DNA from: Protonemura montana
Lineage: Eukaryota; Arthropoda; Insecta; Plecoptera; Nemouridae
Direction: 5' to 3'
DNA length: 64,000 bases
Assembly (NCBI GenBank): GCA_947568835.1
Contig: OX387612.1
Coordinates: 11,038,001 to 11,102,000 of the forward strand
In this document: piece by piece, positions 10,509 to 62,927 of the stretch
How positions within the stretch are numbered: position 1 is the first letter of the stretch
Layout of the letters: each line of letters begins with the position of its first letter
Notes under the pieces: generated by a model
What the model saw: the letters and a program-made list of their open reading frames with translations, nothing else
Database searches by the model: none
Told to the model about the DNA's origin: nothing
Translations under genes and position numbers: made by a program

Positions 10509-10625
10509 TTGTTTTCCTTTGGTTTTAGCGACTCAAGAACATGGCGGCAGCAAACATTGCTTTGTGCCTAAATTTAACAAAAGCACAGCAATAATTGCAA
10601 CATATTCCACTCTTGGAGAACTGTC
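10448..10625. repeat. Dispersed ~160-bp duplicate (copy 1; partner at 12705-12870)
   Basis: The block beginning GTTGAAAACAGTCTCGCC and continuing through AACATGGCGGCAGCAAAC is repeated at about 12705-12870 with scattered differences. It overlaps the putative upstream exon at 10437-10508, so that exon may belong to a mobile or duplicated sequence. Confidence 0.8.
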
Positions 10626-10787
10626 ATTCTCATCAAATAAACTAAAATCATCTCAAAAAGCCAGTGTCCAAGTAGCTCAATGGTTCAGAGCAACACCCGC
10701 GATAGGTGGAGATCGGGGTTCGAGTCCGCGTTTGGGCATCAGTTTTTGAGACGGTTATAGTGTTGTTAATAATAAAAAGAGCCAGAC
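10611..10787 (+). mobile_element. tRNA-derived SINE-like element, single core
   Basis: This is a tRNA-like core with box A (TAGCTCAATGG) and intact box B (GGTTCGAGTCC), followed by GTTTGGGCATCA. The core is flanked by GTCATTCTCATCAAATA...CATCTCAAAA on the left and TTTTTGAGACGGTTATAG...TTAATAATAA on the right, which are imperfect inverted repeats of each other. Confidence 0.85.
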
Positions 10788-11738: not shown

Positions 11739-11751
11739 AATAAATCAATCG

Positions 11752-12477
11752 TTTTTTTTTATTATTTACAACACTATGACCGTCTCAAAAAGCCAGTGTC
11801 CAAGTAGCTCAATGGTTCAGAGCAACACCCGCGACAGGTGGAGATCGGGGTCCAAGTAGCTCAATGGTTCAGAGCAACACCCGTGACAGGTGGAGATCGG
11901 GGTTCGAGTAGCTCAATGGTTCAGAGCAACACCCGCGACAGGTGGAGATCGGAGTCCAAGTAGCTCAATGGTTCAGAGCAACACCCGTGACAGGTGGAGA
12001 TCGGAGTCCAAGTAGCTCAATGGTTCAGAGCAACACCCGTGACAGGTGGAGATCGGGGTCCAAGTAGCTCAATGGTTCAGAGCAACACCCGCGAAAGGTG
12101 GAGATCGGAGTCCAAGTAGCTCAATGGTTCAGAGCAACACCCGCGACAGGTGGAGATTGGGGTCCAAGTAGCTCAATGGTTCAGAGCAACACCCGTGACA
12201 GGTGGAGATCGGAGTCCAAGTAGTTCAATGGTTCAGAGCAACACCCGTGACAGGTGGAGATCGGAGTCCAAGTAGTTCAATGGTTCAGAGCAACACCCGT
12301 GACAGGTGGAGATCGGGGTTCGAGTAGCTCAATGGTTCAGAGCAACACCCGCGACAGGTGGAGATCGGGGTTCGAGTCAGCGTTTGGGCATCAATTTTTG
12401 AGACGGTTATAGTGTTGTTAATAATTAAAAAAAACCGCGCATTGCAAGCGTTTGCAATTTAAATAAGATTTCATCAT
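11752..12477 (+). mobile_element. tRNA-derived SINE-like element with ~11-unit 52-bp internal array
   Basis: The target-site duplication AATAAATCAATYG (13 bp, one mismatch) lies at 11739-11751 and 12478-12490. The left end reads ACAACACTATGACCGTCTC and the right end has the inverse (GAGACGGTTATAGTGTTG), followed by a tail with ATTGCAAGCGTTTGCAAT. Between them the 52-bp unit GTCCAAGTAGCTCAATGG... is repeated about 11 times from 11798. Junctions between units fall inside box B, so internal units keep box A but have a broken box B; only the final unit has a near-full one. Confidence 0.9.
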
Positions 12478-12490
12478 AATAAATCAATTG

Positions 12491-13484: not shown

Positions 13485-13491
13485 CTATAAC

Positions 13492-14034
13492 ACTCCTTTC
13501 TTCCGTGCCAGACACTCTTGCGTTTTGCAAACAAATCCAGCAACACTTGAAAACCAGAACACCATCTGGTTAGTTTTGTTCACTCAGCTTAGCGGTGAAA
13601 TCAAAGTCCCAGCTACAACATAAAATGTCCTGCCATTGAACTTTTGAGTCCAAACTTTAAAAAAACGCGAGGCTCTGACGTCCATGGTGTCAGCTAATCA
13701 CAAAGACTAGAATGGTTTCATTGACGACGAACATTTACTTGTTTATGCCAAATTTCTACTTTCTACATTAATAGAAATTAGTGAAAAACTAAAACTAGAG
13801 ACGGTGAGAGTGAGGTTTATATAGCTGGAAGTAGGGTTGTTTTTATTTTACGGTACAAAAGCAGTTTTTTTTTTAAGGTGATTTTAGTCTAAAGACAGAC
13901 TTCGATGTCTAAAGATTCGGCAGAGTTCGCCCCGCCATCTTCAGGTTCAACCGAAATAACATTTTTTTTCTTTTTCGGTACAGAAAATGAGTGATGATGA
14001 TCTCAGTGTGATGATGATCCCAGTGTGATGATGG
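13492..14034. other. 3' flank / 3' UTR region of the elongase gene
   Basis: This is downstream of the elongase stop on the minus strand. A minus-strand AATAAA lies at 13842-13847, about 190 bp past the stop codon, and is a plausible polyadenylation signal. No other gene is seen. Confidence 0.5.
13842..13847 (-). promoter_or_regulatory. Candidate polyadenylation signal AATAAA (elongase)
   Basis: AATAAA on the minus strand about 190 bp beyond the stop codon. It is a position-based inference only. Confidence 0.45.
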
Positions 14035-24607: not shown

Positions 24608-24756
24608 CGTTCAGCGCTCACTGAGCGATCTAGCGTAAGCGCTTTTCTCGCCGCTCACTGGAAACAAGACAATGTCAGTATATTTTCTTGTAAGGATCGA
24701 ATTGGTTTAGCAAAACTTGACCTCGCTCATGTTAAGTATTTTATTGTTAGAAACAC

Positions 24757-25086
24757 TTTAACGGTCTCAAATATTGATGCCCAAACGGAGACTCGAACCC
24801 CGATCTCCATCTGTCGTAGGTGTTGCTCTAACCAATTCAGCTATCTGGACCACGATCTCCACCTGTCAAGGGTGCTGCTCTAACCAATTGACATTCTTGG
24901 ACACATCATTTGTTTAGATGATTTCAGTGCATTTGATGAGAATGACAGTTCTCCAAGGAGTAGAACCATGAGGCTGTAAATACTCACAGTCACTCTGATT
25001 CTAGTGACGCCATATCACGTCACAACCTGTCAATCTTCAGAAATAATAAAAAACCTCGCTCATTGCAAGTGTTTGAAATTTAAATC
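24757..25086 (-). mobile_element. tRNA-derived SINE-like element (upstream of elongase)
   Basis: Minus-oriented, with GACTCGAACCCCGATCTCC (box B) and one extra partial core, then the conserved flank TCACAGTCACTCTGATTC and a tail with AATAATAAAAAACC. Confidence 0.85.
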
Positions 25087-25705
25087 AGTTTTTACACAAT
25101 TAAATGTATTTTACCAGCAATCACCTCACAGCCTCGACCATCACTCCCAGATAAATAGCAATGCTTACCCCAGAAAGTTGGTTTATCGCAAGAATAATTC
25201 CTTAAGTAATTTCAACGCTTACAGAAAGTGTTAAGTCTTGTTCGAGGTCCCAACTATAACTTAGACGCACTGTCTGACCGCAAAGGTTCCATCATTATTT
25301 TTGTTCGATTAACATTCTTACGCACATATGCGTTTAATTCGTTGCTATTTCTCACGATCCCAGCTTGCATTTATGTTAATTGCAAGAAGTGTGTCTATTG
25401 TCTTTGGTTTAACTATTTTAACATTGAAAGAGGTCAAGTCATCCGCCAAACGACAATGTTGGCGATCGACGAAACACTTTAACGGTTGGTTAAAAAAATA
25501 GTTTCACATGCTAATGTTTTCCTATTGTTTGGTGGCGATCTTAGCAATGCCAGCTCCATCTTTTTATATTGTTAATACGCAGAAGGCCGTGCAGTCCGAT
25601 GTGCTGGGTGCTTGGGGTCAGGCATCAAAAGTGAAAAAAGAGAAGTACTGTTTTCAGGACAGATTTTCAATCATGAGAGAATATTTTGTTGTAAAGTAAA
25701 AATAC
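25087..25705. other. Intergenic DNA between elongase and foldback copy
   Basis: Short ORFs only. No family features or splice-bounded exons recognised. Confidence 0.5.
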
Positions 25706-29900: not shown

Positions 29901-31202
29901 GACCTAGACCCAGACCCAGACCTAGACCCAGACCCAGACCCAGACCCAGACCCAGGCCCAGACCCAGACCCAGACCCAGACCCAGACCCAGACCCAGACC
30001 CAGACCCAGACCCAGACCCAGACCCAGACCCAGACCCAGACCCAGACCCAGACCCAGACCCAGACCCAGACCCAGACCCAGACCCAGACTAAGAGCAGTG
30101 TTGCTGAATATTTTATCATTATGACAACTATAACCGTCTCAAAAATTGATGCCCGAACGGGGACTCGAACCCCGATCTCTACCTTTCACGAGTTTTGCTC
30201 TAACCAATTGTGCTACTTGGACCCCGATCTCTACCTGTCGCGGGTGTTGCTCTAACCAATTGAGCTACTTGGACCCCGATCTCTACCTGTCGCGGGTGTT
30301 GCTCTAACCAAGTGAGCTACTTGGACCCCAATCTCCACCTGTCACGGGTGTTGCTCTAACCAATTGAGCTTTTTGGACCCCGATCTCCACCTGTCACGGG
30401 TGTTACTCTAACCCATTGAGCTACTTGGACCCCGATCTCTACCTGTCGCGGGTGTTGCTCTAACCAAGTGAGCTACTTGGACCCCAATCTCCACCTGTCA
30501 CGGGTGTTGCTCTAACCAATTGAGCTTTTTGGACCCCGATCTCCACCTGTCACGGGTGTTGCTCTAACCAATTGAGCTACTTGGACCCCAATCTCCACCT
30601 GTCACGGGTGTTGCTCTAACCAATTGAGCTTTTTGGACCCCGATCTCCACCTGTCACGGGTGTTACTCTAACCCATTGAGCTACTTGGACCTCGATCTCC
30701 ACCTGTCGCGGGTGTTGCTCTAGCCAATTGAGCTACTTGGACCTCGATATCCACCTGTCACGGGTGTTGCTCTAACCCATTTAGCTACTTGAACACTGAT
30801 TTCTTGAGACGATTTTAGTGTATTTGTTGAGAATGACGGTTATAGTGTTCATAATAATAAAATACCCCGCGCATTGCAAGCGTTTGCAATTGAAATCTTT
30901 ATTTCATCTAGTGTTGCTGAACTTCGGGGCTTGCCAACTCACCCATCTCGTATCCTTGGTAACCGCCACCAGGAGCTTGTAGGTGATCGGGGGCGCCGTG
31001 GAGAAGACAAGTGGCGCCATCAGCAGCAGGACTCTGAACTTGTCGTTGTACTCTGTCCGCTCGGACAGCAGGGCTAACAGCTGGGTTGCACCTGTGCACA
31101 TATCGACTCAAATTAAAAACACGAAAATCACTGATGGCCAACAAAGGATTTATGATGTGAGAAAAATTCCCCAAATCGGAGATGTTTATGTGATTTCAAT
31201 GC

Positions 31203-37982: not shown

Positions 37983-39501
37983 ACCGAACGGTTCGGCGTG
38001 TTGGAAACACTGGTTCTCATGAGATCACCGAAGTTAAGCAGCAATGCGCTGGGTCAGGTATTGGATGGGTGACCATCATACACATGACCAGTTCTGTTTG
38101 TGAGAGAGGTTGGAGGGATGAAAGTTAAGCAACACTGCGCTGGGTCAGGTATTGGATGGATGACCATCATACACATGACCAGTTCTGTTCGGGAGAGAGG
38201 TTGGAGGGATGAAAGTTAAGCAACACTGCTCTGGGTCAGGTATTGGATGGATGACCATCATACACATGACCAGTTCTGTTCGGGAGAGAGGTTGGAGGGA
38301 TGAAAGTTAAGCAACACTGCGCTGGGTCAGGTATTTGATGGGTGACCATCATACACATGACCAGTTCTGTTTGTGAGAGAGGTTGGAGGGATGAAAGTTA
38401 AGCAACACTGCGCTGGGTCAGGTATTGGATGGATGACCATCATACACATGACCAGTTCTGTTCGGGAGAGAGGTTGGAGGGATGAAAGTTAAGCAACACT
38501 GCTCTGGGTCAGGTATTGGATGGATGACCATCATACACATGACCAGTTCTGTTCGGGAGAGAGGTTGGAGGGATGAAAGTTAAGCAACACTGCGCTGGGT
38601 CAGGTATTGGATGGGTGACCATCATACACATGACCGGTTCTGTTCGGGAGAGAGGTTGGAGGGATGAAAGTTAAGCAACACTGCGCTGGGTCAGGTATTG
38701 GATGGGTGACCATCATACACATGACCAGTTCTGTTCGGGAGAGAGGTTGGAGGGATGAAAGTTAAGCAACACTGCGCTGGGTCAGGTATTGGATGGGTGA
38801 CCATCATACACATGACCAGTTCTGTTTGTGAGAGAGGTTGGAGGGATGAAAGTTAAGCAACACTGCGCTGGGTCAGGTATTGGATGGATGACCATCATAC
38901 ACATGACCAGTTCTGTTCGGGAGAGAGGTTGGAGGGATGAAAGTTAAGCAACACTGCTCTGGGTCAGGTATTGGATGGATGACCATCATACACAAGACCA
39001 GTTCTGTTCGGGAGAGAGGTTGGAGGGATGAAAGTTAAGCAACACTGCGCTGGGTCAGGTATTGGATGGGTGACTATCATACACATGACCAGTTCTGTTC
39101 GGGAGAGAGGTTGGAGGGATGAAAGTTAAGCAACACTGCGCTCGGTCAGGTATTGGATGGGTGACCATCATACACATGACCAGTTCTGTTCGGGAGAGAG
39201 GTTGGAGGGATGGAAGTTAGTACAGCAACTTCACTCGCCTTGCTTATCAACCTCTCGACAGCATGGATTTGTGGAGGAATCCTGCTGTTCTAGTTGTACC
39301 GTCCTTCGGAAGGGACGTTAAGCCGGTGGTCCCCTTGGTGCTCTTCGACAGGAGTAGGCTACGTGCCGGCACCGGGTTCCCCCTCCTCTCTTCTAGGCTA
39401 GGTTAGGTTCATCATCATCCACTCATTCACCGACGCCATTAGACCAGTGCCGCATGGCCAGATGTCAAAACAGTGCGTCGTTAAACACCACAAAATATAA
39501 A
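37983..39501 (+). mobile_element. 5S-rRNA-derived SINE, full length, 13 units
   Basis: The target duplication ATCTGATGKTTCGC (14 bp, one mismatch) lies at 37969-37982 and 39502-39515. The head ACCGAACGGTTCGGCGTG is followed by GAGATCACCGAAGTTAAGCA, which matches the 5S rRNA interior. The 91-bp unit then repeats 13 times from 38033 (next at 38124 and 38215). The body includes CCGTCCTTCGGAAGGGACG, and the tail has GTTAAACACCACAAAATAT. Variants TTTGTGAG and GCTCTGGG recur every 273 bp, a three-unit higher-order repeat. Confidence 0.95.
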
Positions 39502-45500: not shown

Positions 45501-48500
45501 TGATCTGAGTAGCTCACATCAATCAGATTTGGAAATTGTAGTTCAACATAGCATTGAAAACACATTTGTAACTAGTTTTTGTAAAAAACATTGCTAAAAA
45601 AGCCTATAAATTAGGCTTTAATGACAGCCTACTTTGTCTTCCTGGGACAGATTGAACAAGAAGCGAAGAAGCAAGCTAAAGACGCAAACTTAAGCAACAC
45701 TGCTTCATTGTTGTTTGAGTGTTTTGACGAGGAAATGCTACCGATCTGCAGCGTCTTCTCCGGGATCATCAGCAACCAAAGTGAGTTACGATTCATCCGC
45801 TCGATAAAGTTGTACCTACTCAGTTCAATGGTAGAACACTTGCCAACAGGGGAAAGAGATGGAGGATAGACTGAACATGACTAACTTAACAGGTAAACAA
45901 GGACATGAATATAACAGAATCGAATGGAAAGGAAGTTAGGAAATAGGAAGAGGTGTTGAAGAGGGGGAATTGGATTATTGGGATGAAGAATGGATTAAGT
46001 TTCAGGAAACGGGTTTTGTTCCTCGAGCTTTTTCTTCAATGTAACGCAGTTATTATGAATTCTGGCCTCTAAAATCAAGACTGAAATTCTCTCCACGAGT
46101 TGGTATCAATGCAGGGCCATCTTCTTTCGCAGAATAGATGCCAGGTCTTGTTCTTTATCACAAACTTGCATCTTCCTAGAAGTTGTCATTTATATTAGTA
46201 TTCCTAATGTCTATTGCCTATTTGTTAATAATCTATCTCTGAATGTTAAATTCTTATTTCTTGTTGTGGCAGAAAATGCTTTGACCAACGAGCTAAAGAT
46301 ATCGAGGATCGACAAGCACGCAAGCTCTTGTCTTGGCAAGGAAGAAGTCTTCATGTTGGTGGAGAAAGTTAACAAAAGTAAGTAAATTCATGCTTTAGTG
46401 GTCCATTTTATGCAGCAATTATTGTGATTTTTGATAATACCTTTTTTGACAGCAAGAATTGCAATACGGTTGTCAATACAATAATTAAATACACCCCAAG
46501 TGTTGCAAATATTTGTATAATATTTGTCTTCAATAATTCTGTTTCATCTACGACGGGATGAAATGTAGATCTAAGTTCGATTTCCGAAAAACATTTTCAT
46601 ATTTATGTACAAATATTTTTTTTGTCATAAGGCTAACTAAAAAAAAATTTAGCCTCATAAGCAGAAATATGTCATGTGTATTCTGTTTGTTTTGACACAG
46701 AACTTTCGTAGCAAGCTTTGCAAATGTTTTCCAACTTCCCAAGTTCTTATTCGAATCAGTGGTCATCCGTATACCTTGCTATACCCACTACTTTTTATAC
46801 TCTAACTTACCCTATTCAGGTCTGGTTTTATCATAATCTTGGCTTCTAGTTGGAGTGTAAGTTGAAACTGTTGCCATGACGACTTCCAATCACATGCAGT
46901 GAAATTCAGATGTTTCTGTGAGCTAGAGATCCAACTTATAGTAGAACATTTTGTTGAAACTGTTGCCATGACGACTTCCAATCACATGCAGTGAAATTCA
47001 GATGTTTCTGTGAGCTAGAGATCCAACTTATAGTTGAACATTTTGTTGAAACTGTTGCCATGACGACTTCCAATCACATGCAGTGAAATTCAGATGTTTC
47101 TGTGAGCTAGAGATCCAACTTATAGTTGAACATTTTTTTCAAACTGTTGCCATGACGACCTCCAATCACATGCAGTGAAATTCAGATGTTTCTGTGAGCT
47201 AGAGATCCAACTTATAGTTGAACATTTTGTTGAAACTGTTGCCATGGCGACTTCCAATCACATGCAGTGAAATTCAGATGTTTCTGTGAGCTAGAGATCC
47301 AACTTATAGTTGAACATTTTGTTGAAACTGTTGCCATGACGACTTTCAATCACATGCAGTGAAATTCAGATGTTTCTGTGAGTTAGAGATCCAACATAAA
47401 GTTAAACATTTAGGTAGATCCTGACCTAAGCAGTTCAGTCACAATACAATTTTTTTGCAGACCCAGCTTATGTTTGTAATAAAGATGAAAGCTAAGTTGT
47501 TAATACCTTCCTAGTTTGGCTGACTTTCTTGAATCGAATTAAGGTGGTCGTTGTACGTTACTGATACCACCTGTTACTTGCCGCTTACAGTCTTTTCAAG
47601 ACCAACGTGATGATAAATATTTGTTATTTATCTTGACTTAAAGAACGAACACATAAAAAAATGTCATACTAGAATCACAACCAACTTGACAGTCTAGGTC
47701 TTCTAGTGTCTAGGTTATAGGGGAGAAAACATTCAATGCAGCAAGATATCTGACTTAATATATCTGGCTGTAGCTTTAGCCTGTGGTTATTGCTTTGTCA
47801 ATTGTGGACCTTTCTGCCATTGAAAATCCGACAGGATGTGAATTATCAAACTCAACGTCAGTAGCTATTCAGCTTTAACACCCCGAACCTAACCTCAAAA
47901 CGTGTTGACTTTGCAGAACACATTCAGGTTCGTTTTTTCGAGGTGGACGACGACGACACGGAAGTCTGGTACGATTACGCCACGTTTACCGAGCTCGACG
48001 TTCACCACCAGTTTGCCATCGTGTTCAAAACACCGCCGTATCGGTGAGTTTTTCGCCGTACAATGCAATCCATTGATGTCTAATGCAAGGCTAAACATGC
48101 CAACGAGTTTCCTCACTTAACCTGTCTTTGCTTCTTGTTTACCAACGATGGTTTCCATGGTTTCAGCCGCTTGGACATAGCACATGCCGTCAACGTGTTC
48201 GTTGAGCTGAGAAGACCGATTGATAACCAACACAGCGAACCAATCAAATTCCAGTACCATCCGTGTGAGAAGCAAGGTCAGTCGAAGGTGCTTATCACGT
48301 GTCTGGAATAGCTAATTGCTCGACGAGCTAATTGCTGGAAAGTAATTAAAATTCTGGACAGTATTTTAACAGCCTGTTTAGGAAAAGTGATTATTTGAAG
48401 TTAGTTTATTTTGGTGCATGCCTAGAAAGCCTCAAGTAAATAATTAATTCAAAGAATTCATTTTGTTACCTGTTGCCATGGCTTTTTGAGACAATTTTAG

Positions 48501-51500
48501 TGTTTTTGATGAGAATGACGGAACTTCAAGGAGATCTCAAAATCGGTTCAAAAAGCCAGTGTCCAAGTAGCTCAATGGCCGGGCTAGAGCAACACTCGCG
48601 ATAGGTGGAGATCGGGGTTCGAGTCCCCGTTTGGGCATCAATTTTTTAGACGGTTATAGTGTTGATAATAATAAAATGTCGTACACTTTTCTTGAGGGTC
48701 TTCATGTTGCATTCTTTATGTTTTGAACTCTAATTTATTATAAATAAATAGAAAATACTTAAACAAAACTGTTATCTCTGAAGTTCCCCACAATATCGCT
48801 GTGTTTACGCTGTGTTTTGCCTCCTACTCCAGCATCTCGCCTGCGGAAAAAGCCTCGACGGGACTCGTTCCAGGAAGCCTCTTCGTCCACCGACCCGATG
48901 AACGGGTCAGAACCAATGCCTTCATCCTCTACCGACCCGATGCTTACCAATGGGTTCACGGAGGAGGCTTTCGTGTCCAACACGCAGTCGATCGAAGCCG
49001 TGATCAATGCACCGTTGTTGACCGAAGCTGCGTTGGCCGCACTTTACTTCGACGAAGGTAGTAAGAATCACACACGAGATCTCTTTACGAGTCGAACCGT
49101 CTTTAACTGGGACCTTGGCGGGCGCAAAACCAAACCAACCAGCAACGGACCTTTTATATTTGTTTTTTGAACGCACTTAAATCTCTCAACAAATGCCAGA
49201 TGTCCAAGTAGCTCAATTGGTTAGAGCAACACCCGCGACAGGTGGAGATCGGGGTCCAAGTAGCTCAATTGGTTAGAGAAACACTAGCGACAGGTGGAGA
49301 TCAGGGTCGAAGTAGCTCAATTGGTTAGAGAAAAATTTGCGACAGGTGGAGATTAGGGTCCAAGTAGCTCAATTGGTTAGAGAAACACCCGTGACAGATG
49401 GAGATCGGGGTCCAAGTAGCTCAATTGGTTAGAGCAACACCCGCGACAGGTGGAGATCGGGGTTCGAGTAGCTCAATTGGTTAGAGCAACACCCGCGACA
49501 GGTGGAGATCAATTTTTGAGAGGTTATTAGTGTCCCTAATAACAAAAAAACTGCTCTGCGTTTCTTTCCAATTCATTCATCGTTTCCAATAAATGGAAAA
49601 ATTTGAACACCGAAACAAATTCGACTCAAATCCCATTTCAATCCAGTTTGGGTCCAATTTGTGGGTGCTTGGACGATACATTTCAGGGGTATTAAAAGAA
49701 CGGATTTACCAATCATTGTTGCAAATGTTTATAAAATGTTTGTAATTAAAAATGATTCCCTGTGCTATTTAAGATCAGTGTACGTATATCCCACCTGATA
49801 AGAGGGACTTGTATTTATGTTATGCCAGCTAAAGTGAGAAATGTTGAACTGTCTTTTGTTAATAACTTTTAAATAAGTGAAGAAATATTACAACGCTGGT
49901 GAAATGCATTCTAGGAACAGGAAGTGTCGTTTTAATAAAACTTTGTACAAAAAAAAACTAAAGAATCGGTTGTTTATTTGTCTTCGCTTGTTGTTGGTTG
50001 AATTTTTGTGCTTGCCCTTGTCTTTGTTTCGGATGATCGATTGTTTGTGGTGATTTAATCCAAGTCAATTGTTGTCTGGTATTCACTCATTGTTGTGTTT
50101 AAATTGCTTGCCGTGAATTGCAATCAATCACATTCTTTGAAATCATTTATCGACGTGGTTAATCTTAATAACCAGATTAAAGTGTAATAATGTGGTTGGC
50201 TGAAAATCTCTCCAAACAATAATCTCTGTGATGAAAAGACTTGCAGCTGTGAAACAGTTTGGCATGATGCAGCTCAATGCAGTCAACAGATTTTCAAGAT
50301 TTCATTCAGTTTTGTCAAGTGTTTTTTGTTAAAATCAAATTAAAAAAACTGTCTTGCTCTGTGTTTTAAAAAACATAGCAGATCTAAGTCCAGAGATTTT
50401 AAAAGTTGAATTTGTTCCCGGGGAAGTGAAATCGAGTCGTTACTCATTGGAATAAATAACTTAAGTTTCAATTGAGAAATCTTTTTAAATTTGAAACCAT
50501 TTTTTTTTTTTTTTTTTAAGAAAATAATGAACACATATTTTTTTATTTTTTTTTTAAATTCAATTTTGAATAAAATATCTCTGTTTAAAATGTTTGCGTT
50601 TGAATCTCGTACAAAAACGAGGGTCGACATTTTTTCTGACATGAAGTGAAATCTGACGTCAGTATGACGTCAAGAAACAGAAGCGAACGCAAAGGATACA
50701 AGAAAATGACGTCAGAACTACGTGTAGTTAATCACAGCCCGTTTTAATCCCGCCACGAGAATTCATATTTTAGCCATTCTTAAAACAAATAGAAATAGAA
50801 AAGTTATGATCGGATTATAAAAAGAAAAAAATACACCAGATTTTATTTTAAACGCGTATTTGAACACAATGATAATAATTCAATAATTATCTTAATGAGA
50901 TTTCCCTGTTGAAAGATGCATCAGTTTCAAGCATCTGGATTTTGTTGAAAATAATTCTTTGTTAGCCAAGTAAAAGAATCATCACTGCAACATTTCGCTG
51001 GTAAAACTTTCTTAATCTCGGTCTCCGCTCCCGGTCTTCGCTCCCGGTCTCCGCTCCCGGTCTCCGCTCCCGGTCTTCGCAGCATGGAATACGCTAACGG
51101 AAGTGAATTCAGTTCCAGATTTCACGTGGGTCAACCTGGACGTGGAAACTGATTCCGCCGGCAGTAAGTTGATTCTGTCTTGTTTCAAGTTTCATTGCAC
51201 CTTCTATCATTGTTTCCCTTTCTAATAATATCACCCGTTCTGTGCTTGTGTGGATAATAGACCAGGATATCAGATGGTTTCAAGACTCATCTCTACTTAC
51301 TACTAAATTAGATAGGTACCTACTAAGTCCACTAATATTAATAACCCGACCACAAAGAAGAACCAACTCTATTGATGAGGTACTCTACTGATCTTTGTCT
51401 TAATCACTATTATTATTATTATATTTTACATAACCGCTTACATTTCCATATTTAAACTTATTTTTTAAGGCCCATACAATTACTATGTAACTTGTCAGTA

Positions 51501-54500
51501 GCCAAACAAAATAATTAAATATATATAACGTAATTTATCTAAACTTAGTTTGACAAAATCTATTTCAACTGGGTTTCAATTCTAAGTAAAGAACAACTAG
51601 TTTGTCCAAAAAACATTATTTAAAGACTAAAACGTTTGTGAACTCTAAAGAAAGAGTTTCAAGATCTGGGTCAAATTTTGTTACCCTTTGACATTTTCAG
51701 TGGTCAGTGGGAATAAGTTATCCTACTTTTCAAATCACCCATCCAATACCTGACTCAGCACAGTGTTGCTAAACTTTCATCCCTCCAACCTCTCTCCCAA
51801 ACAGAACTGGTCATGTGTATGATGGTCACCCATCCAATACCTGACCCAGCGCAGTTTTGCTTAAATTTCATTCCTCCAACCTCTCTCCCAAACAGAACTG
51901 GTCATGTGTATGATGGTCACCCATCCAATACCTGACCCAGCATAGTGTTGCTAAACTTTCATCCCTCCAACCTCTCACCCAAACAGAACTGGTCATGTGT
52001 ATGATGGTCACCCATCCAATACCTGACCCAGCGCAGTTTTGCTTAAATTTCATTCCTCCAACCTCTCTCCCAAACAGAACTGGTCATGTGTATGATGGTC
52101 ACCCATCCAATACCTGACCCAGCATAGTGTTGCTAAACTTTCATCCCTCCAACCTCTCTCCCAAACAGAACTGGTCATGTGTATGATGGTCACCCATCCA
52201 ATACCTGACTCAGCACAGTGTTGCTAAACTTTCATCCCTCCAACCTCTCTCCCAAACAGAACTGGTCATGTGTATGATGGTCACCCATCCAATACCTGAC
52301 CCAGCGCAGTTTTGCTTAAATTTCATTCCTCCAACCTCTCTCCCAAACAGAACTGGTCTTGTGTATGATGATCACCCATCCAATACCTGACCCAGTGCAT
52401 GTTACTTAACCTGGACATGTTTATGATTGAATTTTGTTGTTTCAGCCGCTCAAGGACGGAAGCATTCGTCGCGTGTGTCAGCGGAAGCCAAGGAACGGGA
52501 CCAAGTGGTGGTAAACGGGGACGAGCTGCTGCGGGAAGTAATGCAAGGTATTGCCCACTAGCGTTGACCAACAAGCTCTCATAACCTCACTTTATTCTAG
52601 CGACATTTGGTTCAAACTTTGATCAAATCGATGTTTTTATTCGAACAAAGTTTGCCAATCATTGATTTACCAAAGAAGTAAAAGTATTTTTTAGCCATTG
52701 ACAACTAGTCAGGCATTTTTTTTTTTTTTTTCATCTATTTTACTACTTTTTTTTACGCTTTAGTAGTGTTTTAATTGTGGTTGAGTCTCAAGATTTGATG
52801 TTCTCCGAATCTACGACATTTTACAAATGTCGAGTAAGTGAATTCAGACATCAAACGTGAAATAAGAGAATTATAGAACAGTATTTTATTTTATTCTGGA
52901 ATGATTAACACATTTCATTAAAAACCTCAATTTTTTTTAGTTTATTTGTATTTTTAAACTTTTTAAAATGTCAGAAAAGCAGTAAAACAAATTAGAATTT
53001 TAAATTGAGTTTTAACCAATTGTGCTCAATTTTGCTGCAATCGGCTTCAATTAGAGTTTTTTTTTATTATTTTTTTATTTTTAATATTTTTGTAAGAATC
53101 TAAGGCGTGATAATTATGTTCTTCGTTTGCGACACAATGCAGTCATCTTCAAAGCTTTGATTGACAGATGATTGCCAGGTACAAACCAATGTGCCCCCAA
53201 ACAAAACTCTACTCTCACACATTCACAATCGTAGAACTAACACGAATAAAAGCCGGATTCTAGAGTTGGACATTTCCAAACCCATTCAAACATCTTGAAC
53301 TTTAGGATGAAATCTTAATAAATTGCAAACGCTTGCAATGCGCGGGGTATTTTATTATTAACAACACTATAACCGTCTCAAAAATTGATGCCCAAACGCG
53401 GACTCGAACCCCGATCTCCACCTGTTGCGGGTGTTGCTCTGAACCATTGAGCTACTTGGACCCCGATCTCCACCTGTCGCGGGTGTTGCTCTGAACCATT
53501 GAGCTACTTGAACACTGGCTTTTTGAGACAATTTCAGTGTATTTGATGAGAATGACAGATCTCCAAGGAGTAGAACCAAGAGACTGTGAATACTCACAGT
53601 CACTCTGATTCTAGTGACGCTATATCACGTCACAACCTGTCAAACTCGAATAACTCCAATTTGAAGTTGGATTCATTGCTGTATTATATTTTATATTTTA
53701 TATCCAATGTCAAATTGGAGTTATTCGAGTTTGACAGGTTGTGACGTTATATGGCGTCACTAGAATCAGAGTGACTGTGAGTATTCACAGCCTCTTGATT
53801 CTACTCCTTGGAGATCTGTCATTCTCATCAAATACACTCAAATCGTCTCAAAAAGCCAGTGTCCAGATAGCTCAATGGTTCAGAGCAACACCCACGAAAG
53901 GTGGAGATCGGGGTTCGAGTCCGCGTTTGGGCATCAATTTTTGAGACGGTTATAGTGTTGTTAATAATAAAATCTTGAACTTTGGTTGAGTGGTTATTTG
54001 CAGAGCCATGGTTTGATGTTATGATGTGTTTTTCGGTTTTGGTCTGCGTTGAAGAGGTTTGCAGCCCTCGAAAGAGTCTCATTATTCTTAAATTCTCAAC
54101 AACATCATTCTCCTAAAGATGACGAGCCGTGCCTCGTGGAAACTTTGAGACGTGAGACCCTTTCTAGGGCTGCAAACCTCTTCAACACAGAGCAAAACCA
54201 AAAAACATATAATAATAATTTCATTTATTCAATGTGAACAATATTACAATTGTTATTTGAACGTGTCAAAGCTTCCAAACCATTTTCTTATTTATGCAAA
54301 GGTTCATATATGCATTTTAGACATGTTGAATATGTTGAATCATAACATGTTGAACTTTTTGCTTTTAATGCAAAAAAATGCACTAAAAATGTGTGTGAGT
54401 TTGGTTGTAGTTGGGCGTTGGTTTACTGCCGTTGCATAATGTTCCTGGCCGACACATAGGTTTGAAAAGGGGACAAACCGTCCAACTCAAAACATCCCTT

Positions 54501-57500
54501 TACATTACCATTACTTAATGATATTTTTTATTTTTATTTTTGCAAGTACTTTCCTTTAGTATTAAAAGTAATTGAAGGTGCTGTAGTTTTAGTAAAGTAC
54601 TCAAGTGTACGGAGCATTACAGTTTCGTAAACATAGTTATGTTTCAAACAAATTCTTGTTGAATATTTTATGTCCAAACATCCTTCAATCCACCCCCCCC
54701 CCCCCCCCCCTCAACCCAACCCAACCAACCCACCCACCATTGCCCTGTAATAAATCTGCATCAAATCCTGGCTTATAACTGACCTGGAAGAAATTAAACA
54801 CAAATGCAAAACAGAAAACCAGAATTTCATTTTTATTTATTAATAAAAATAGATATAGCCTTGCAAACATTGATGCCCAAACGGGGACTCGAACCCCGAT
54901 CTCCACCTGTCGCGGGAGTTGCTTTAACCAATTGAGCTACTTGGACCTCGATCTCCACCTGTTGCGGGTGTTGCTCCAACTATTATTCAAATCTATTGCC
55001 TCCAAACTAACCTAGGCATATAAGACCAAGTCCGATGACTTTGCAGATTTGATCCCCCCCACCCGACCCTCACCCTTCCATCGCCACTAAACCTAGACGA
55101 TGTTGGCTGCCCTTTACGCAGGGTGCTCGGAAACAAAGCTACGAAGAAACGCAATCAACGAAATCCTGGAGTCATTCCGAAGACTTTGCAGCCAACGAAC
55201 CGAAGAAGGAAACACGTATGTTCACAATTATACATTGCCCCATTGGAATATCTGTGCAAGCTTTATCTGTGGTAGTCTTTGTCTCATCAGGATGGAATAT
55301 CTGTGCAAGCTTTATCTGTGCTAGTCTTTGCCTCATAAGGATGGAATATCTGTGCAAGCTTTATCTGTGCTAGTCTTTACCTCATAAGGATGTAATATCT
55401 GTGCAAGCTTTATCTGTGTCAGTCTTTGTCTCATAAGGATGGAATATCTGTACAAGCTTTATCTGTGGTAGTCTTTGCCTCATAAGGATGGAATATCTGT
55501 ACAAGCTTTATCTGTGGTAGTCTTTGCCTCATAATGATGGAATATCTGTGCAAGCTTAATCTGTGATAGTCTTTGCCTCATAAGGATGGGATATCTGTGC
55601 AAGTTTTATCTGTGGTAGTCTTTGCCCCATAAGGATGGAATATCTATGCAAGTTTTATCTGTGGTAGTCTTTGCCCCATAAGGATGGAATATCTGTGCAA
55701 GCTTCATCTGTGGTAGTCTTAACCTCATAAGGATGTAGAATCTGTGCAAGCTTTATCTGTGTACGCCTGATTATCGAAGTCTTATATTTGTCTGTTTCAG
55801 GGCCGTACATCTGATTGTTGACAACGAGGACCTTGCTTCATTGAAGACGCTGACGGAAGAAATGGCTACCCTTCGATGTTCAGACCTTCTCAACGTCGCT
55901 AATGACAGCGGAGAGGTTAGGAAACAAATGCAGGGTTTATGTCATCTTATAATCGTCCGTGCAAAGTGTTTAAGTGCAACAAACAATTTGAGTTGCTAAG
56001 GGATAGATATTTATGTCCAGACCAATTAACAGAGAACACAAATTAACCGTCAAATATCCAGGAGCTCGGCTTCGGTTAATTTAGCAGCATGTTAATGAAG
56101 CTTTTGTCGGGGAAAAGTTGGGCCACTAACTGAAAAATACAATGCCTAAAAGGAAGAATAAATGGGACAATTTACAATTATAGAACTAGAGAAAGTAGTA
56201 TTGGACTTATAGGAAATAGGACTGGGAAATTGTTATGGATATTAACAGTAACGTTATGCCTCTATCTAAAACCTTCACACTCAACGAAATAAGTAAAGCA
56301 AAGGGACTTTAGGCTGCAAAGTTATCTGGATTATCAAGTGTTTACTTAGCCAATGTTCATGTAACATTATTAGATGTGTTTTCAATGTTCAGACGGCCCT
56401 GCACCTGGCCACCTGCCTGAATGCACCTGACATGGCGGCCATCTTGCTTGTGGGCGGGGCCAGCTCGGCGCCGACCAATCAAGAGGGACGTACCGCAGCC
56501 CACCTCGCTGCTGAGCTCGGTCACGACGCGTGCCTTGCCGTGTTACTGGACGCGACGCAACGACCAGGAGACTGGATCCAGACAAGAGACAAACACGGTG
56601 AGACAAATTCACTGGGAGGCGTCAGACTGATTTCAAGTGGATTGTACCGAACGGTTTAGCGTGTTGGAAACACCGGTCCTCGCGAGATCACCAAAGTTAA
56701 ACAACACTGCGCTGGGTCAGGTATTGGATGGGTGACCATCATACACATGACCAGTTCTGTTAGGGAGAGAGGTTGGAGGGATGCAAGTTAAGCAACACTG
56801 CGCTGAGTCAGGTATTGAACGGATGACCATCATATACATGACCAGTTCTGTTCGGGAGAGAGGTTGGAGGGATGAAAGTTAAGCAACACTGCGCTGGGTC
56901 AGGTATTGGATGGGTGACCATCATAGACATGACCAGTTCTGTTCGGGAGAGTGGTTGGAGGGATGAAAGTTAAGCAACACTGAGCTGAGTCAGGTATTGG
57001 ATGGGTGACCATCATAGACATGACCAGTTCTGTTCGGGAGAGAGGTTGGAGGGATGCAAGTTAAGCAACACTGCGCTGAGTCAGGTATTGAACGGATGAC
57101 CATCATATACATGACCAGTTCTGTTCGGGAGAGAGGTTGGAGGGATGAAAGTTAAGCAACACTGCGCTGGGTCAGGTATTGGATGGGTGACCGTCATACA
57201 CATGACCAGTTCTGTTCGGGAGAGAGGTTGGAGAGATGAAAGTTAGTACAACAACTTCACTCGCCTTGCTTATCAACCTCTCGACAGCATAGATTTGTGG
57301 AGGAATCCTGCTGTTCGCGTTGTACCGTCCTTCGGAAGGGACGTTAAGCCGGTGGTCCCCTTGGTGCTCTCCGACAGGAGTAGGCTACGTGCCGGCACCG
57401 GGTTTCCCCTCATCCCTTCTAGGCTAGGTTAGGTTTATCATCATCCACTCATTCACCGACGCCATTAGACCAGTGCCGCATGGCCAGATGTCAAAACAGT

Positions 57501-60500: not shown

Positions 60501-62927
60501 ATTAGAGAAAAAAATAATTGATCCAAAAATAATTCTTATCCTTAAAAAGTATAATGATTTTTATCAGATGTGACATTTTAGAAGCTCTTGACTTGAGTTA
60601 TTCTACCAACAAACTGAATATCACAGTAAAGTTGACCTTGTTTGACTCTCGCCTGGTTGCAAAATTGTGTTTGGCACGCTGCAAGTTTAAAAGAGAGAAA
60701 AAAAACACGTTTCCAACAACGTCTCGACTTCTTGTGTTTGTGTTTCCGACAGAAATCGTACGATTCCTCGTGGAAGAGATGGCGGTGGACGTCGACATCG
60801 AGGATATTGCAGGCAAGACTGCGATGGACGTTGCTATGGCAACCGGTTGTCAGGACGTGATCCAGATCCTGACAACAGCTGGGGTGAGTCAAACCACTCA
60901 ATTCTGTTGTGCGATCCTGCATTTACTTTGCAGCCACTTGCAATTCCCTACAACCGATAACTCACACAATTTGTAGTTGCTATTTTAATTATAAAATATT
61001 CACATTATCTTTTAGCTTTGGACACTGGTAAAAGTGATAAGAAATATATTTAATTATTCTAAAAAATTATATTCTTCTAGTTGTATTCTTTAATTTAAAA
61101 AAAAACTTTGTATATATAAATAAATATATATATGTGTGAATTTATGCATTTAGGAAGCTTGAACTTGGTAATTGTTATAATTTTATGGGTTTTTTTTTTG
61201 TTATTGGAAAATTGTCAGGACTGCTTAACCCTTGATAAAGTAACAGGTACAAGTTACGAAACGTTGGGAAATTCAGTTGTTCTTCACTTAGCATTTCAAT
61301 AGTTTTTTCCACAACTTTGTTTCTTTCCGGTTGCCAGGGCCGACCAACTGCGGCTGCCGACTCAAGCTGTGAATCCGATTCAGATGCTGACTTTGAGGAC
61401 GCCGAGTCTGGCTCAGAAATGGAGCTCAACGTCTCAAAAGTAGAGAACTCTGACTCTGTCTCGAGTCTTTCGGAGGCTGTAATGCAGCGGCTGTGCAGCT
61501 TCCTGGACTCGGCCGCGAGGTGGAAATCGCTGGCCGCAGAACTTGACTTTGCGTTTCTCATCGGCGGGATCGACGCGGAGAACGTCGGCAGTCCCGGAAA
61601 GACGCTCGTCAACTTTGCAGACGTGAGGCACTCGACGGTTCTTTCACAACTTGGGAGACAGATGCTGGTTTTGTATCTAAATTTAAGAAGACGTACAGAG
61701 ATTACGATGAAATCTTATTTAAATTGCAAACGCTTGCAATGCACGGGGTATTTTAGTATCAACAACACTATAACCGTATCAAAAATTGATGCCCAAACGC
61801 GGACTCAACCCCGATCTCCACCTGTCCACCATTGAGCTATTTGGACACTGGCTTTTTGAGACGATTTTAGTGTTTTTGATGAGAATGACAGTTCTCCAAG
61901 GAGTAGAACAAAGAGGCTGTGAATACTCACAGTCACTCTGATTCTAGTGACGCTATATCACGTCACAACCTGTCAAACTCGAATAACTCCAATTTGACGT
62001 TGGATGCGTTGCTGTATTACGATGAAATCTTATTTAAATTGCAAACGCTAAATTGCAAACGCTAGTCTGCGTTTGGGCATCAATTTTTGAGACGGTTATA
62101 GTGTTGTTAATAATAACGTACAGGGATCTTTACAGTCCCATGCAAAACATCAAGATAAACTTGGTTTTAAGTTTAGTTTATCCTAACTCTGTGTAAACTA
62201 GACATTTCTTGTGAAATCTGATTTAAATTGTAAATGCTTGTGATATGCAGAGCATTGTTTTATGTGTGTTGGCTTCATTGACTTATCCAAGTGCCAAGTC
62301 AGGTATAGATGTGGTTTTCCCTGGGCTAATGTTAAAACGGGAAGCTCAGCTTCATTTTGTCTGTTTCCCTTGCTTCCGATTTGTCAATATTGTCGATTTA
62401 TTGGCCCTTGCGTCAGTGCAACTTATCTCTGCAAGTTTATAAGGGCTATAACTGAATTAGTTGAGTCAGTCTGGGCGTAGATTGATCAAAATATAGCGTC
62501 GTAAATGCAATTAAATTGGGGAAAAATACAGAATGAAAGTTCTCAGAAATCAGTAAGATGGTGGGCTAGTAACAGAAAATGAAACCCTTTTGGTCAGCTT
62601 AGAGGCTGAACTCTAGGCTTTGCAACAGACCAAAAGACAAGGCTGGAGACTAAAAGCCCTGCTTTGCAATGTACTGATTAATGAGCCCTCAATCAAGGTA
62701 TTTTCAAATGTTTTTAACAAATGCTTAAAATGGTTTTGTGCAAAATCTTCAACCCATAGCTATGCACCACCAATGAGTGTGTAATAGACACCAATGTAAC
62801 TGAGATTATTTCCCGACGATTGATTTTGTTTTGCTTCCAGATGAATGGGGTAGGTGTGGACAAACTACGTGCATCACTGACGAAGATCTCGAGCCCTGAG
62901 AACTTGGCGGACATCTTTGATTCTTAG
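42571..62927 (+). CDS. NF-kappaB p105/p100/Relish-type transcription factor (19 exons, 867 aa)
   Basis: Inducible transcription factor with its own IkappaB-like half. Exons: 42571-42619, 43068-43202, 43774-43943, 44325-44494, 44858-44999, 45651-45780, 46273-46377, 47917-48043, 48167-48276, 48833-49057, 51083-51163, 52446-52547, 55122-55215, 55801-55915, 56393-56597, 57825-57965, 60753-60883, 61338-61622, 62841-62927; all phases agree, 2604 bp. Rel homology domain, residues ~72-378: CLRVVEQP, DNA loop RFRYLSETTG, then HHQFAIVFKTPPYR and VFVELRRP in the dimerisation half. Nuclear signal RLRKKPRRDS (382-391). Ser/Thr-rich linker 392-545 with no glycine-rich region. About six ankyrin repeats, 547-744 (TALHLATCLNAPDM, TAAHLAAELGHD, TALHAACQEQQ). 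An acidic serine cluster (750-785), then a death domain (about 790-855: LCSFLDSAARWKSLAAELD, PGKTLVNFAD). The start exon is the least certain part. Confidence 0.94.
43985..44305 (-). repeat. Solo 5S-SINE-derived array, ~3.5 units (NF-kappaB intron 3)
   Basis: Minus-oriented 91-bp units without SINE body or tail. They end about 20 bp before the exon 4 acceptor (TGAACTTTCAG). Confidence 0.9.
44601..44822. repeat. 63-bp tandem repeat, ~3.5 copies (NF-kappaB intron 4)
   Basis: TCATCGATACACAAGCACTGG recurs every 63 bp (44603, 44666 and on). Copies are nearly identical, with frames open on both strands as an artefact. It ends 36 bp before exon 5. Confidence 0.95.
45172..45420. mobile_element. Palindromic Penelope-like fossil with hammerhead-like core (NF-kappaB intron 5)
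   Basis: Two arms of about 92 bp (from AACTATTTCAACTGGG inward to CTTCAGAGGTTT, and the inverse) form a near-perfect palindrome around GAGCAGAGGCTC. Each arm carries CTGAAGAAGTAAC, a loop, GTTRC and CGAAAC. This follows the hammerhead core order CUGANGA, stem II, GAAA. Hammerheads and inverted terminal repeats are known from Penelope-like elements. A linked block (GATAAATCAAGTAGACATG) follows, as at 34555. No coding part remains, so it is a broken fossil. Confidence 0.65.
46861..47410. repeat. 92-bp tandem repeat, 6 copies (NF-kappaB intron 7)
   Basis: GTTGAAACTGTTGCCATGACG recurs at 46861, 46953, 47045 and onward, with few differences. Confidence 0.95.
48486..48678 (+). mobile_element. tRNA-derived SINE-like element (NF-kappaB intron 9)
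   Basis: Left flank CTTTTTGAGACAATTTTAG, then the tRNA-like core with box A and box B (GGTTCGAGTCCCCG), then GACGGTTATAGTGTTGATAAT. Single core. Confidence 0.85.
49199..49515 (+). mobile_element. tRNA-derived SINE-like array, ~6 units (NF-kappaB intron 10)
   Basis: 52-bp units, here with the box A form CAATTGGTTAGAGCA (closer to a true tRNA than the CAATGGTTCAGAGCA form elsewhere). No complete box B at the end of the array; AATTTTTGAGAGGTTATTAG follows. Confidence 0.85.
49560..51018. other. NF-kappaB intron 10 remainder
   Basis: AT-rich, with poly-T/A runs near 50500. No exon or repeat family recognised. Confidence 0.5.
51019..51082 (+). repeat. 13-bp pyrimidine-rich repeat forming the exon 11 acceptor tract
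   Basis: CGGTCTCCGCTCC is repeated five times (CT or TT variant in the middle), the last unit running into CGCAG at the exon 11 acceptor. The tandem repeat therefore serves as the polypyrimidine tract. Confidence 0.9.
51735..52415 (-). repeat. Solo 5S-SINE-derived array, ~7.5 units (NF-kappaB intron 11)
   Basis: 91-bp units without SINE body or tail. Two unit types (AGTGTTGCTAAACTTTC and AGTTTTGCTTAAATTTC on the plus strand) mostly alternate, giving a 182-bp higher-order repeat. The array ends about 30 bp before exon 12. Confidence 0.92.
53304..53971. mobile_element. Palindromic double tRNA-SINE-like element with one 12-bp target duplication
   Basis: ATCTTGAACTTT flanks the whole unit at 53292-53303 and 53972-53983. 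The left half is minus-oriented (two cores) and the right half plus-oriented (one core). The halves meet at an AT-rich centre (53680-53710) with matching arms: TTCTAGTGACGC/GCGTCACTAGAA, CAAACTCGAATAACTCC and its inverse. Both ends show ACACTATAACCGTCTC or its inverse. Lies in NF-kappaB intron 12. Confidence 0.92.
54026..54212. repeat. Hairpin (MITE-like) with ~50-bp arms (NF-kappaB intron 12)
   Basis: GTTGAAGAGGTTTGCAGCCC at about 54042 is inverted as GGGCTGCAAACCTCTTC at about 54168, with GGTTTTGGTCTG / CAGAGCAAAACC outside. No coding capacity and no named family. Confidence 0.75.
54866..54980 (-). mobile_element. tRNA-derived SINE-like fragment (NF-kappaB intron 12)
   Basis: Minus-oriented ATTGATGCCCAAACGGGG, box B complement GACTCGAACCCCG, one full and one partial core; truncated. 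Confidence 0.85.
55243..55765. repeat. 49-bp tandem repeat, ~11 copies (NF-kappaB intron 13)
   Basis: GGAATATCTGTGCAAGC recurs every ~49 bp with substitutions. It fills the intron from 27 bp after exon 13 to about 35 bp before exon 14. Confidence 0.93.
56243..56290. repeat. Single 47-bp foldback terminus remnant (NF-kappaB intron 14)
   Basis: ATCTAAAACCTTCACACTCAACG matches the inverse of the 47-bp unit with several changes. An isolated relic. Confidence 0.6.
56646..57522 (+). mobile_element. 5S-rRNA-derived SINE, full length, 6 units (NF-kappaB intron 15)
   Basis: A perfect 13-bp target duplication, TCAAGTGGATTGT, lies at 56633-56645 and 57523-57535. Head ACCGAACGGTTTAGCGTG, then GAGATCACCAAAGTTAAACA (5S interior), six 91-bp units, the body, and a tail ending in GTTAAACACCACAAAAA. 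It inserted within the ankyrin-coding part of the gene without disturbing splicing signals. Confidence 0.95.
57728..57785. repeat. Fragment of the foldback interior (NF-kappaB intron 15)
   Basis: TGTTTATCAATCGTTGAGGTT and the following AT-rich stretch match the centre of the 424-bp foldback element. No termini present. Confidence 0.6.
58050..59427. repeat. 34-bp minisatellite, ~40 copies (NF-kappaB intron 16)
   Basis: CATCAGTGGGAAGTATATAT plus GTTCAACTACAGAG totals 34 bp, with nearly identical copies. A CTTCAG variant occurs at about 58427, 58664, 58970 and 59208, i.e. 7, 9 and 7 units apart. All three plus-strand frames are open because the unit has no stop. These are not genes. Confidence 0.97.
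59800..60223. mobile_element. Foldback DNA transposon, 424 bp, compact copy (NF-kappaB intron 16)
   Basis: A perfect 7-bp target duplication, GTTCCGC, lies at 59793-59799 and 60224-60230. Termini CGTTGAGTGTAGGTTCTAGG and its inverse; arms of about 200 bp include GATGGCCGCCAAATGAC and TTTCTCGTAGGTTAACTCGC. Non-autonomous. The transposase family is unknown; a 7-bp duplication argues against Tc1 (2 bp), hAT (8) and Mutator (9-11). Confidence 0.92.
61228..61300 (+). mobile_element. Second hammerhead-like Penelope-type fossil (NF-kappaB intron 17)
   Basis: TTGATAAAGTAAC, a different loop (AGGTACAA), GTTACGAAACGTTGGG, then CTTAGCATTTCAATAG. It shares the order and the GTAAC/GTTAC stem with the 45172 element. 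Short and broken. Confidence 0.55.
61703..62115 (-). mobile_element. tRNA-derived SINE-like element, partial palindrome (NF-kappaB intron 18)
   Basis: ACGTACAGRGAT (12 bp, one mismatch) lies at 61691-61702 and 62116-62127. The left half is the full minus-oriented element and the right half is mostly deleted, but the inverted end GAGACGGTTATAGTGTTG remains. It has the same architecture as 53304-53971. Confidence 0.9.

What the first reader, a model, noticed from the sequence alone, without database searches (positions are those of the whole stretch)
53304..53971. tRNA-SINE-like element that moved as a palindrome with one target duplication
Seen: two oppositely oriented tRNA-like halves form one near-palindrome bounded by a single 12-bp duplication (ATCTTGAACTTT). 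Copies at 11752-12477, 30109-30909 and 61703-62115 also have inverted ends (GAGACGGTTATAGTGTT and its inverse) and 12-13-bp duplications. Known: SINEs lack terminal inverted repeats and have a 3' tail. Inference: this family combines a tRNA-derived pol III core with inverted termini, so it may be an inverted SINE dimer fixed as a mobile unit, or a new hybrid class. The recurrence in four copies argues against a one-off.
Basis: partly seen in the sequence, partly recalled or inferred. Interest (0 to 1): 0.78.

Follow-up and report, generated by a model that had tools for sequence, protein, structure and literature searches.

The report
tRNA-bearing element with Penelope-style inverted ends
A small tRNA-containing jumping element, probably from an insect, appears to be rebuilt as a head-to-head double copy when it inserts, as if copied onto both cut DNA strands from two fixed start points, which resembles Penelope-type retrotransposons more than ordinary tRNA-derived SINEs.

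Summary
The copies at 11752, 30109 and 61703 also have inverted ends and 12-bp duplications.

I found nine loci in the window. One old copy (24736-25092) probably is. Four end at one site without a tail.

In the four clear copies the outer ends are fixed: one is the A-rich point after module X; the other carries a further ~45-nt tail, on that side only. The head-to-head join in the middle is different in each. So the palindrome was not moved as a unit; each insertion made its own. E9 also holds a partial tandem.

Two fixed start points, a one-sided tail, head-to-head halves, one TSD and a partial tandem match published descriptions of Penelope-like elements (PLEs), one of which was shown to cut and extend both target strands and to start reverse transcription at two adjacent internal RNA sites.

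Best reading: a non-autonomous tRNA-bearing element mobilised by PLE-type machinery. No PLE gene or hammerhead ribozyme was found and no genome is held, so this rests on architecture. LINE-driven twin priming is the main rival.

The parts
53292..53303 (.). E7 target site duplication, copy 1 (ATCTTGAACTTT)
53304..53349 (-). E7 tail Y' (ends GATTTCATC + CT; holds ATTGCAA-GCGT-TTGCAAT), present on this side only
53350..53388 (-). E7 module X, tail side (TTTTTGAGACGGTTATAGTGTTGTTAATAATAAAA)
53389..53513 (-). E7 tRNA-like head, tail-side half: full tRNA-like 53389-53461 plus one extra 52-bp unit
53514..53685 (-). E7 body, tail-side half
53686..53701 (.). E7 16-nt AT-rich filler at the head-to-head junction
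53702..53860 (+). E7 body, other half
53861..53933 (+). E7 tRNA-like head, other half (one unit)
53934..53971 (+). E7 module X, tail-less end
53972..53983 (.). E7 target site duplication, copy 2
11751..12477 (+). E2 two-ended copy: X inverted 11756-11791, 11 tandem 52-bp tRNA units to 12390, X 12391-12430, tail 12435-12477; TSD 11739-11750 / 12478-12489 (11/12)
30109..30909 (+). E4 two-ended copy: X inverted 30111-30149, 12-unit tRNA array inverted 30150-30794, end of body inverted to 30841, X from 30835, tail from 30863; TSD 30097-30108 / 30910-30921 (12/12)
61703..62115 (-). E9 two-ended copy with partial tandem: X and tRNA 3' end inverted (about 53 nt), tail fragment, full body, partly deleted tRNA, X, tail; TSD 61691-61702 / 62116-62127 (11/12)
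24736..25092 (+). E3 old, probable two-ended copy: X, two tRNA units and body inverted to 25036, then about 11 nt of X end 25042-25052 and tail 25053-25092; TSD not resolved; 22 nt (18/22) of its tail start recur directly at 24720-24741
10604..10777 (+). E1 one-orientation copy: end of body, tRNA, X; no tail, no TSD found
48479..48677 (+). E5 tail-less copy ending at X, with a short inverted body piece at its other end; no TSD found
49174..49547 (+). E6 one-orientation copy, about 6-unit tRNA array, X, no tail, no TSD found
54836..54976 (-). E8 one-orientation fragment, tRNA and degenerate X, no tail, no TSD found

Best explanation
A non-autonomous retroelement whose unit reads: body (about 170 nt) / tRNA-like pol III-type head (73 nt, its inner 52 bp expanded 1 to 12 times) / X / tail Y'. 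It is inserted by a Penelope-type enzyme supplied in trans. SHOWN: constant outer ends, a one-sided ~45-nt tail, head-to-head halves, a different central join and one ~12-bp duplication in 4 of 4 clear two-ended copies (an old fifth, E3, probably belongs), and a partial tandem in E9. INFERRED: the enzyme makes a staggered cut and uses both target 3' ends as primers. On one strand reverse transcription starts at the outer RNA site (just after AUUUCAUC, keeping the tail). On the other it starts at the inner site (after AAUAAUAAAA, no tail). The two cDNAs run inward for variable distances and are joined by end-joining, microhomology or filler. A near-complete palindrome (E7) results when both cDNAs reach the body; short inverted ends (E2, E9) or a mostly inverted copy (E4, probably E3) when one stops early.
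For: Module map. Similarity stops at the A-rich end of X in all 9 loci, give or take a few A/T (E8's X is degenerate). The tail ends at ATTTCATC + 1-3 nt before the TSD in 4 of 4 clear copies. Exactly one tailed end in 4 of 4. Different junctions in 4 of 4: E2 11-nt homology, E4 3-nt GAC overlap, E7 16-nt filler, E9 join into an upstream tail (read). TSDs. E9 reads past its own unit into an upstream tail fragment, so its template was longer than one unit. Published PLE behaviour. Main text of PMC11167929: the protein cleaves and extends both strands, and reverse transcription starts at two adjacent internal sites whose interval is the 30-40 bp tail, without homology to the target. Passages of PMC3846280: inverted pLTRs, a 31-bp tail optionally at one of them, TSDs of 8-10 bp (none in some copies), a host gene moved between pLTRs in trans. 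Internal control: no inverted self-match in 7 of 7 loci of the 5S-derived family, against clear ones in E2, E4, E7, E9.
Against: No PLE ORF was found; only 26 of 111 listed ORFs plus the Helitron ORF were scanned against Pfam. No hammerhead: none at E up to 5 in E7 and E9, none by core pattern. No match to a known PLE sequence could be tested. The tail is 45 nt, longer than the published 30-40. Targets are not clearly AT-rich (E4, E9). The hairpin in the tail folds no better than shuffles (z -0.67). A run of five or more T directly after the tRNA in 8 of 10 tRNA-X junctions should end a pol III transcript before X, so how a template containing X and Y' is made is unexplained. For four copies no TSD was found. 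E3 is ambiguous: its inverted part and its tail overlap too little to score as an inverted repeat, and 22 nt of its tail start recur directly at its inverted end, so it might be a one-orientation copy inserted in an older tail.
Confidence: 0.55

Rival explanations
1. A LINE-dependent SINE: target-primed reverse transcription starts at the tail end, and twin priming on the second target strand starts at the A-rich point 45 nt inside, giving an inverted 5' part.
For: Twin priming also gives one tail, one TSD and head-to-head pieces (recalled). TSDs of 12 bp lie within the 10-14 bp range of the 5S-derived SINE copies in the same window. The inner start is A-rich.
Against: The outer end of the inverted part is the same in 4 of 4 clear copies with little or no match between target end and RNA (read). 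E7 holds almost the whole unit on both sides, which needs two template passes. Tail-less copies ending at the inner site (4 of 9) need a second unusual start.
Confidence: 0.25
2. A palindromic (inverted-dimer) element that became fixed and moves as a unit, for example as a DNA element with inverted ends.
For: Inverted ends and one TSD in four copies. E7 and E9 share the body start.
Against: Central junctions differ in 4 of 4. Inverted repeats are not terminal on the tail side. The tRNA part points toward the tail in E2 and E9, away from it in E4 (and E3), both ways in E7.
Confidence: 0.07
3. Self-primed (snap-back) cDNA: one cDNA folds on itself through the short inverted repeat around the tRNA and copies itself back to near the target.
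For: The sequence before the tRNA and X are imperfect inverted repeats of each other (76% and 73% over 33 nt), and E2 joins across that homology. Self-priming has been proposed for PLE palindromes (PMC3846280 Discussion). E7 arms share a derived GATCTG.
Against: The arms of E7 differ in tRNA unit number (2 against 1), and in the body the arms differ from each other at 8 of 159 sites, no less than from E9 (8 of 159 and 7 of 160). Snap-back does not explain why copying stops at the same inner point in every copy.
Confidence: 0.13

Closest known systems
Penelope-like elements, Penelope/Poseidon type (D. virilis Penelope, A. carolinensis PAc, A. vaga Pen2a)
   Same: Head-to-head inverted terminal copies, tail of a few tens of nt on one end only, single TSD, partial tandems, two fixed end points attributed to internal RT start sites.
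   Different: No RT/GIY-YIG ORF; carries a tRNA-like sequence; no hammerhead found; tail about 45 nt instead of 30-40.
Metazoan (non-LTR) retrozymes
   Same: Small non-autonomous units in tandem whose mobility is attributed to PLEs (PMC7761336, passages).
   Different: Retrozymes carry type I hammerhead ribozymes; none found here; no tRNA-like head is mentioned in the passages seen.
tRNA-derived SINEs
   Same: tRNA-like head with A and B boxes, short, non-coding, TSDs.
   Different: In two-ended copies both ends derive from the same X region in opposite orientation; tRNA lies next to the X end, not at the 5' end; a T run lies directly after the tRNA.
Short non-autonomous Penelope elements of heliconiine butterflies
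   Same: Non-autonomous PLE-related repeats in insects (PMC6685494, passages).
   Different: No tRNA head or end structure is described for them in the passages seen.
Helenus and Ajax (PMC10886601; search listing and start of abstract only)
   Same: Small-RNA-gene-derived mobile elements outside the classical SINE definition.
   Different: They are LTR retrotransposons.

Membership tests
Penelope-like element (non-autonomous) | Inverted, head-to-head terminal copies of one end region | tested here: met
   4 of 9 copies clearly, E3 probably
Penelope-like element (non-autonomous) | Short 3' extension (tail) at only one of the inverted ends | tested here: met
   4 of 4 clear two-ended copies, about 45 nt; E3 ambiguous
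Penelope-like element (non-autonomous) | Partial tandem / pLTR arrangement | tested here: met
   E9 only, 1 of 9
Penelope-like element (non-autonomous) | RT plus GIY-YIG coding sequence, own or of a partner | tested here: inconclusive
   none in 26 of 111 ORFs scanned; the one RVT_1 hit (28172-28582) is not assigned to PLE; genome not held
Penelope-like element (non-autonomous) | Hammerhead ribozyme in the pLTR | tested here: not met
   E7 and E9 only; core pattern, all nine loci and the window; whether every PLE has one was not tested here
Penelope-like element (non-autonomous) | Sequence match of X-Y' to a PLE of the same genome | not testable with these tools
   no genome held
tRNA-derived SINE | tRNA-related pol III promoter (A and B box) | tested here: met
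   Rfam tRNA at 6 places in 5 loci; GGTTCGAGTC invariant in 8 of 8 aligned terminal tRNA copies, E6 and E9 not included; transcription itself not tested
tRNA-derived SINE | Promoter head at the 5' end, single orientation with one-sided 3' tail | tested here: not met
   two-ended inverted structure in 4 clear copies of 9; body lies upstream of the tRNA and X next to it
tRNA-derived SINE | 3' end shared with a partner LINE | not testable with these tools
   Y' matches only loci of this family in the window at E up to 0.01; no genome
TIR DNA transposon / MITE | Inverted repeats at both termini with a fixed interior | tested here: not met
   about 45 nt lie outside one repeat; interior junction differs in 4 of 4

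The most novel reading that the evidence does not exclude
A SINE-like class that is mobilised by Penelope-type reverse transcriptase instead of a LINE: a tRNA-headed RNA carries two fixed RT start sites about 45 nt apart, and each insertion is built from two convergent cDNAs, one from each site, one on each target strand. The tRNA-like module (with its T run, and perhaps cleavable by RNase P and tRNase Z) may stand in for the hammerhead ribozyme of other PLE-dependent elements.
Probability: 0.37. Interest if true: 0.68.

Novelty: new variant of a known kind. Interest (0 to 1): 0.5.

Why it matters
SINEs are usually defined by dependence on LINEs. A tRNA-headed element with PLE ends would widen that definition and give PLE biology a short, coding-free substrate. 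The rule seen here, one tailed and one tail-less end in 4 of 4 clear copies, gives a simple testable prediction: one start site per target strand, perhaps set by an enzyme dimer on one RNA. It also warns that annotators may misread such copies as inverted SINE pairs or MITEs.

Tried and rejected
Whole-genome copy collection: no genome is held. Exact patterns: X in viral contigs and genome contigs, the 52-bp tRNA unit junction in viral contigs: no match. A 5S-unit pattern was mistyped and is not a window sequence, so its empty answer says nothing.

Helitron: a Helitron helicase ORF is in the window (404-6175), but Helitrons make no TSD (recalled) and the ends here do not fit. Hammerhead search: negative. 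The microRNA-family matches are below gathering scores and are what a long palindrome would give. Tail hairpin as RT start signal: present but not significant by folding.

TSDs for E1, E5, E6, E8: none found. E1 abuts a repeat also found at about 12706-12860: no clear empty site. E3 was first counted as a clear fifth two-ended copy; the check made it ambiguous, and I lowered the PLE confidence from 0.6 to 0.55 and the novel case from 0.4 to 0.37 for that reason. In E2, 10 nt matching the inverted tail lie in the flank outside the TSD (score 20); unexplained.

Arms of E7 as evidence for one or two templates: ambiguous.

Literature for a SINE mobilised by a PLE: five searches listed none; short non-autonomous Penelope elements in butterflies turned up. 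Sequence strings of the family in papers: none. Only listed papers were seen, and the library holds only open-licence PMC papers.

Full report
WHAT IS THERE. The window is very probably eukaryotic. No genome is held for it, and it contains a Helitron ORF, lipase-like and ankyrin ORFs, 5S rRNA matches and 5S-derived arrays and an (AGGTT)-type array. The last suggests an insect (recalled; not proven).

THE FAMILY. blastn with E7, single-sequence nhmmer and module mapping give nine loci. In the sense of the tRNA the unit is: body of about 170 nt; tRNA-like sequence of 73 nt; X = TTTTTGAGACGGTTATAGTGTTGTTAATAATAAAA; tail Y' = TACCCCGCGCATTGCAAGCGTTTGCAATTTAAATAAGATTTCATC. The inner 52 bp of the tRNA, A box to the start of the B box, is tandemly expanded: one unit in E1, E5, E9 (partly deleted) and one arm of E7; two, or one and part of another, in E3, E8 and the other arm of E7; about 6, 11 and 12 in E6, E2 and E4. 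The terminal tRNA copy keeps GGTTCGAGTC unchanged in 8 of 8 aligned copies (E6 and E9 were not put in).

TWO KINDS OF COPIES. E1, E6 and E8 are one-orientation copies that end at X and lack the tail; E5 also ends at X without a tail but carries a short inverted piece of body at its other end. No TSD was found for these four. Four copies (E2, E4, E7, E9) are clearly two-ended: in the orientation with the tail on the right, the left end is the reverse complement of X, beginning at its A-rich end, and the right end is X followed by the tail. The tail is on one side only in 4 of 4. TSDs: E7 12/12, E4 12/12, E2 11/12 (or 17/19 over a longer match), E9 11/12.

THE AMBIGUOUS FIFTH. E3 is old. Its X, two tRNA units and body lie inverted relative to a tail on its right, as in E4. 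But only about 11 nt of X lie beside that tail, so no inverted repeat is scored, and 22 nt of the tail start recur in direct orientation (18/22, first 11 exact) at 24720-24741, across its inverted end. It may be a two-ended copy with an extra tail fragment, or a one-orientation copy inserted in an older tail with a duplicated target. I do not count it.

THE KEY CONTRAST. Outer ends are constant and central joins are private. E2 joins inverted X to the sequence before the tRNA across 11 nt of homology. E4 joins inverted body to X at GAC. E7 joins body to body with 16 nt of AT-rich filler. E9 joins an inverted tRNA 3' end into an upstream tail fragment (read). A palindrome moving as a unit would keep its centre. 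Independent nearby insertions should leave more than one TSD and scattered ends. The data fit a structure built at each insertion from two convergent copies with fixed start points.

WHY PENELOPE-LIKE. PMC11167929 (abstract and main text read) reports that the PLE protein PAc cuts and extends both target strands and starts reverse transcription at two adjacent internal RNA sites, and that the interval between them is the optional 30-40 bp genomic tail. PMC3846280 (passages and Discussion read) describes inverted pLTRs, a 31-bp tail optionally at one of them, TSDs of 8-10 bp (and copies without), partial tandems, head-to-head order, and a host gene moved between pLTRs in trans. PMC8969392 (passages) mentions tandem pLTRs, inverted pLTRs and short 3' extensions. 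The inverted ends, one-sided tail, single TSD, head-to-head order and partial tandem are met here; the partial tandem only in E9 (tail fragment, GTAAT, body, tRNA, X, tail).

WHAT DOES NOT FIT OR IS MISSING. No PLE gene was seen: 26 of 111 ORFs of at least 70 aa outside arrays, plus the Helitron ORF, were scanned, and the only reverse transcriptase match (28172-28582) is unassigned. No hammerhead. The tail is longer than published ones. Targets are not clearly AT-rich. A run of at least five T follows the tRNA in 8 of 10 junctions examined, so an ordinary pol III transcript should stop before X; the template must come from read-through or another promoter. The tail hairpin is not significant by folding.

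CONTROL. The 5S-derived SINE-like family in the same window shows no inverted self-match in 7 of 7 loci, by the same search that finds end-to-end inverted matches in E2, E4, E7 and E9 (short or self-overlapping ones in E5, E6 and E8; none in E1 and E3). Of five 5S copies examined for TSDs, four have 10, 13, 14 and 14 bp and one none. So the inverted ends belong to the tRNA family and not to the region as a whole. It also shows that a 12-bp TSD alone does not separate PLE from LINE insertion.

ONE OR TWO TEMPLATES. The arms of E7 differ in tRNA unit number. In the shared body they differ from each other at 8 of 159 sites and from E9 at 8 of 159 and 7 of 160. They share one derived base. This neither proves nor excludes snap-back.

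NOVELTY. Five literature searches on SINEs or non-autonomous elements with Penelope listed no tRNA-headed element tied to PLEs. Short non-autonomous Penelope elements in butterflies (PMC6685494, passages) and PLE-attributed retrozymes (PMC7761336, passages) are the nearest seen. I rate it a new variant of a known kind, with the PLE link resting on architecture.

Noticed in passing
23807-24540, 31519-32027, 35357-36089, 37984-39219, 43993-44299, 51735-52395, 56646-57245: 5S rRNA-derived SINE-like copies whose inner 91 bp are tandemly expanded (about 3 to 13 units), a parallel to the 52-bp expansion of the tRNA head; TSDs of 10-14 bp in four of five copies examined.
   Followed up: partly
13063-13492, 25704-26140, 59800-60225; arrays 14234-15338, 20056-23092, 26089-26693: A second palindromic family of about 430 bp with ends made of 47-bp units (CCGTTGAGTGTGCAGGTTCTAGGTAGAG...), in places expanded to long minisatellites; looks like a foldback DNA element.
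   Followed up: partly
404-6175 (-): Open 1923-aa Helitron Rep/helicase frame with an N-terminal block of 23-aa (69-bp) repeats matching Pfam STPRs.
   Followed up: partly
24720-24741 and 25053-25074: 22-nt direct repeat (18/22) of the tail start on both sides of E3, unexplained.
   Followed up: partly
62205-62238: A weak match (76%) to the start of the inverted tail without X or tRNA next to E9, perhaps a relic of another element with the same tail; not reported at E 0.01.
   Followed up: no
30908-31195 (-): E4 lies at the end of an open frame (...GGYQGYEMGELASPEVQQH) where the first bases of the element complete the stop codon; no Pfam match.
   Followed up: partly
15542-19073 and 58043-59434: Long minisatellites of 27 bp (130 copies) and 34 bp (41 copies, 99% alike).
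   Followed up: no
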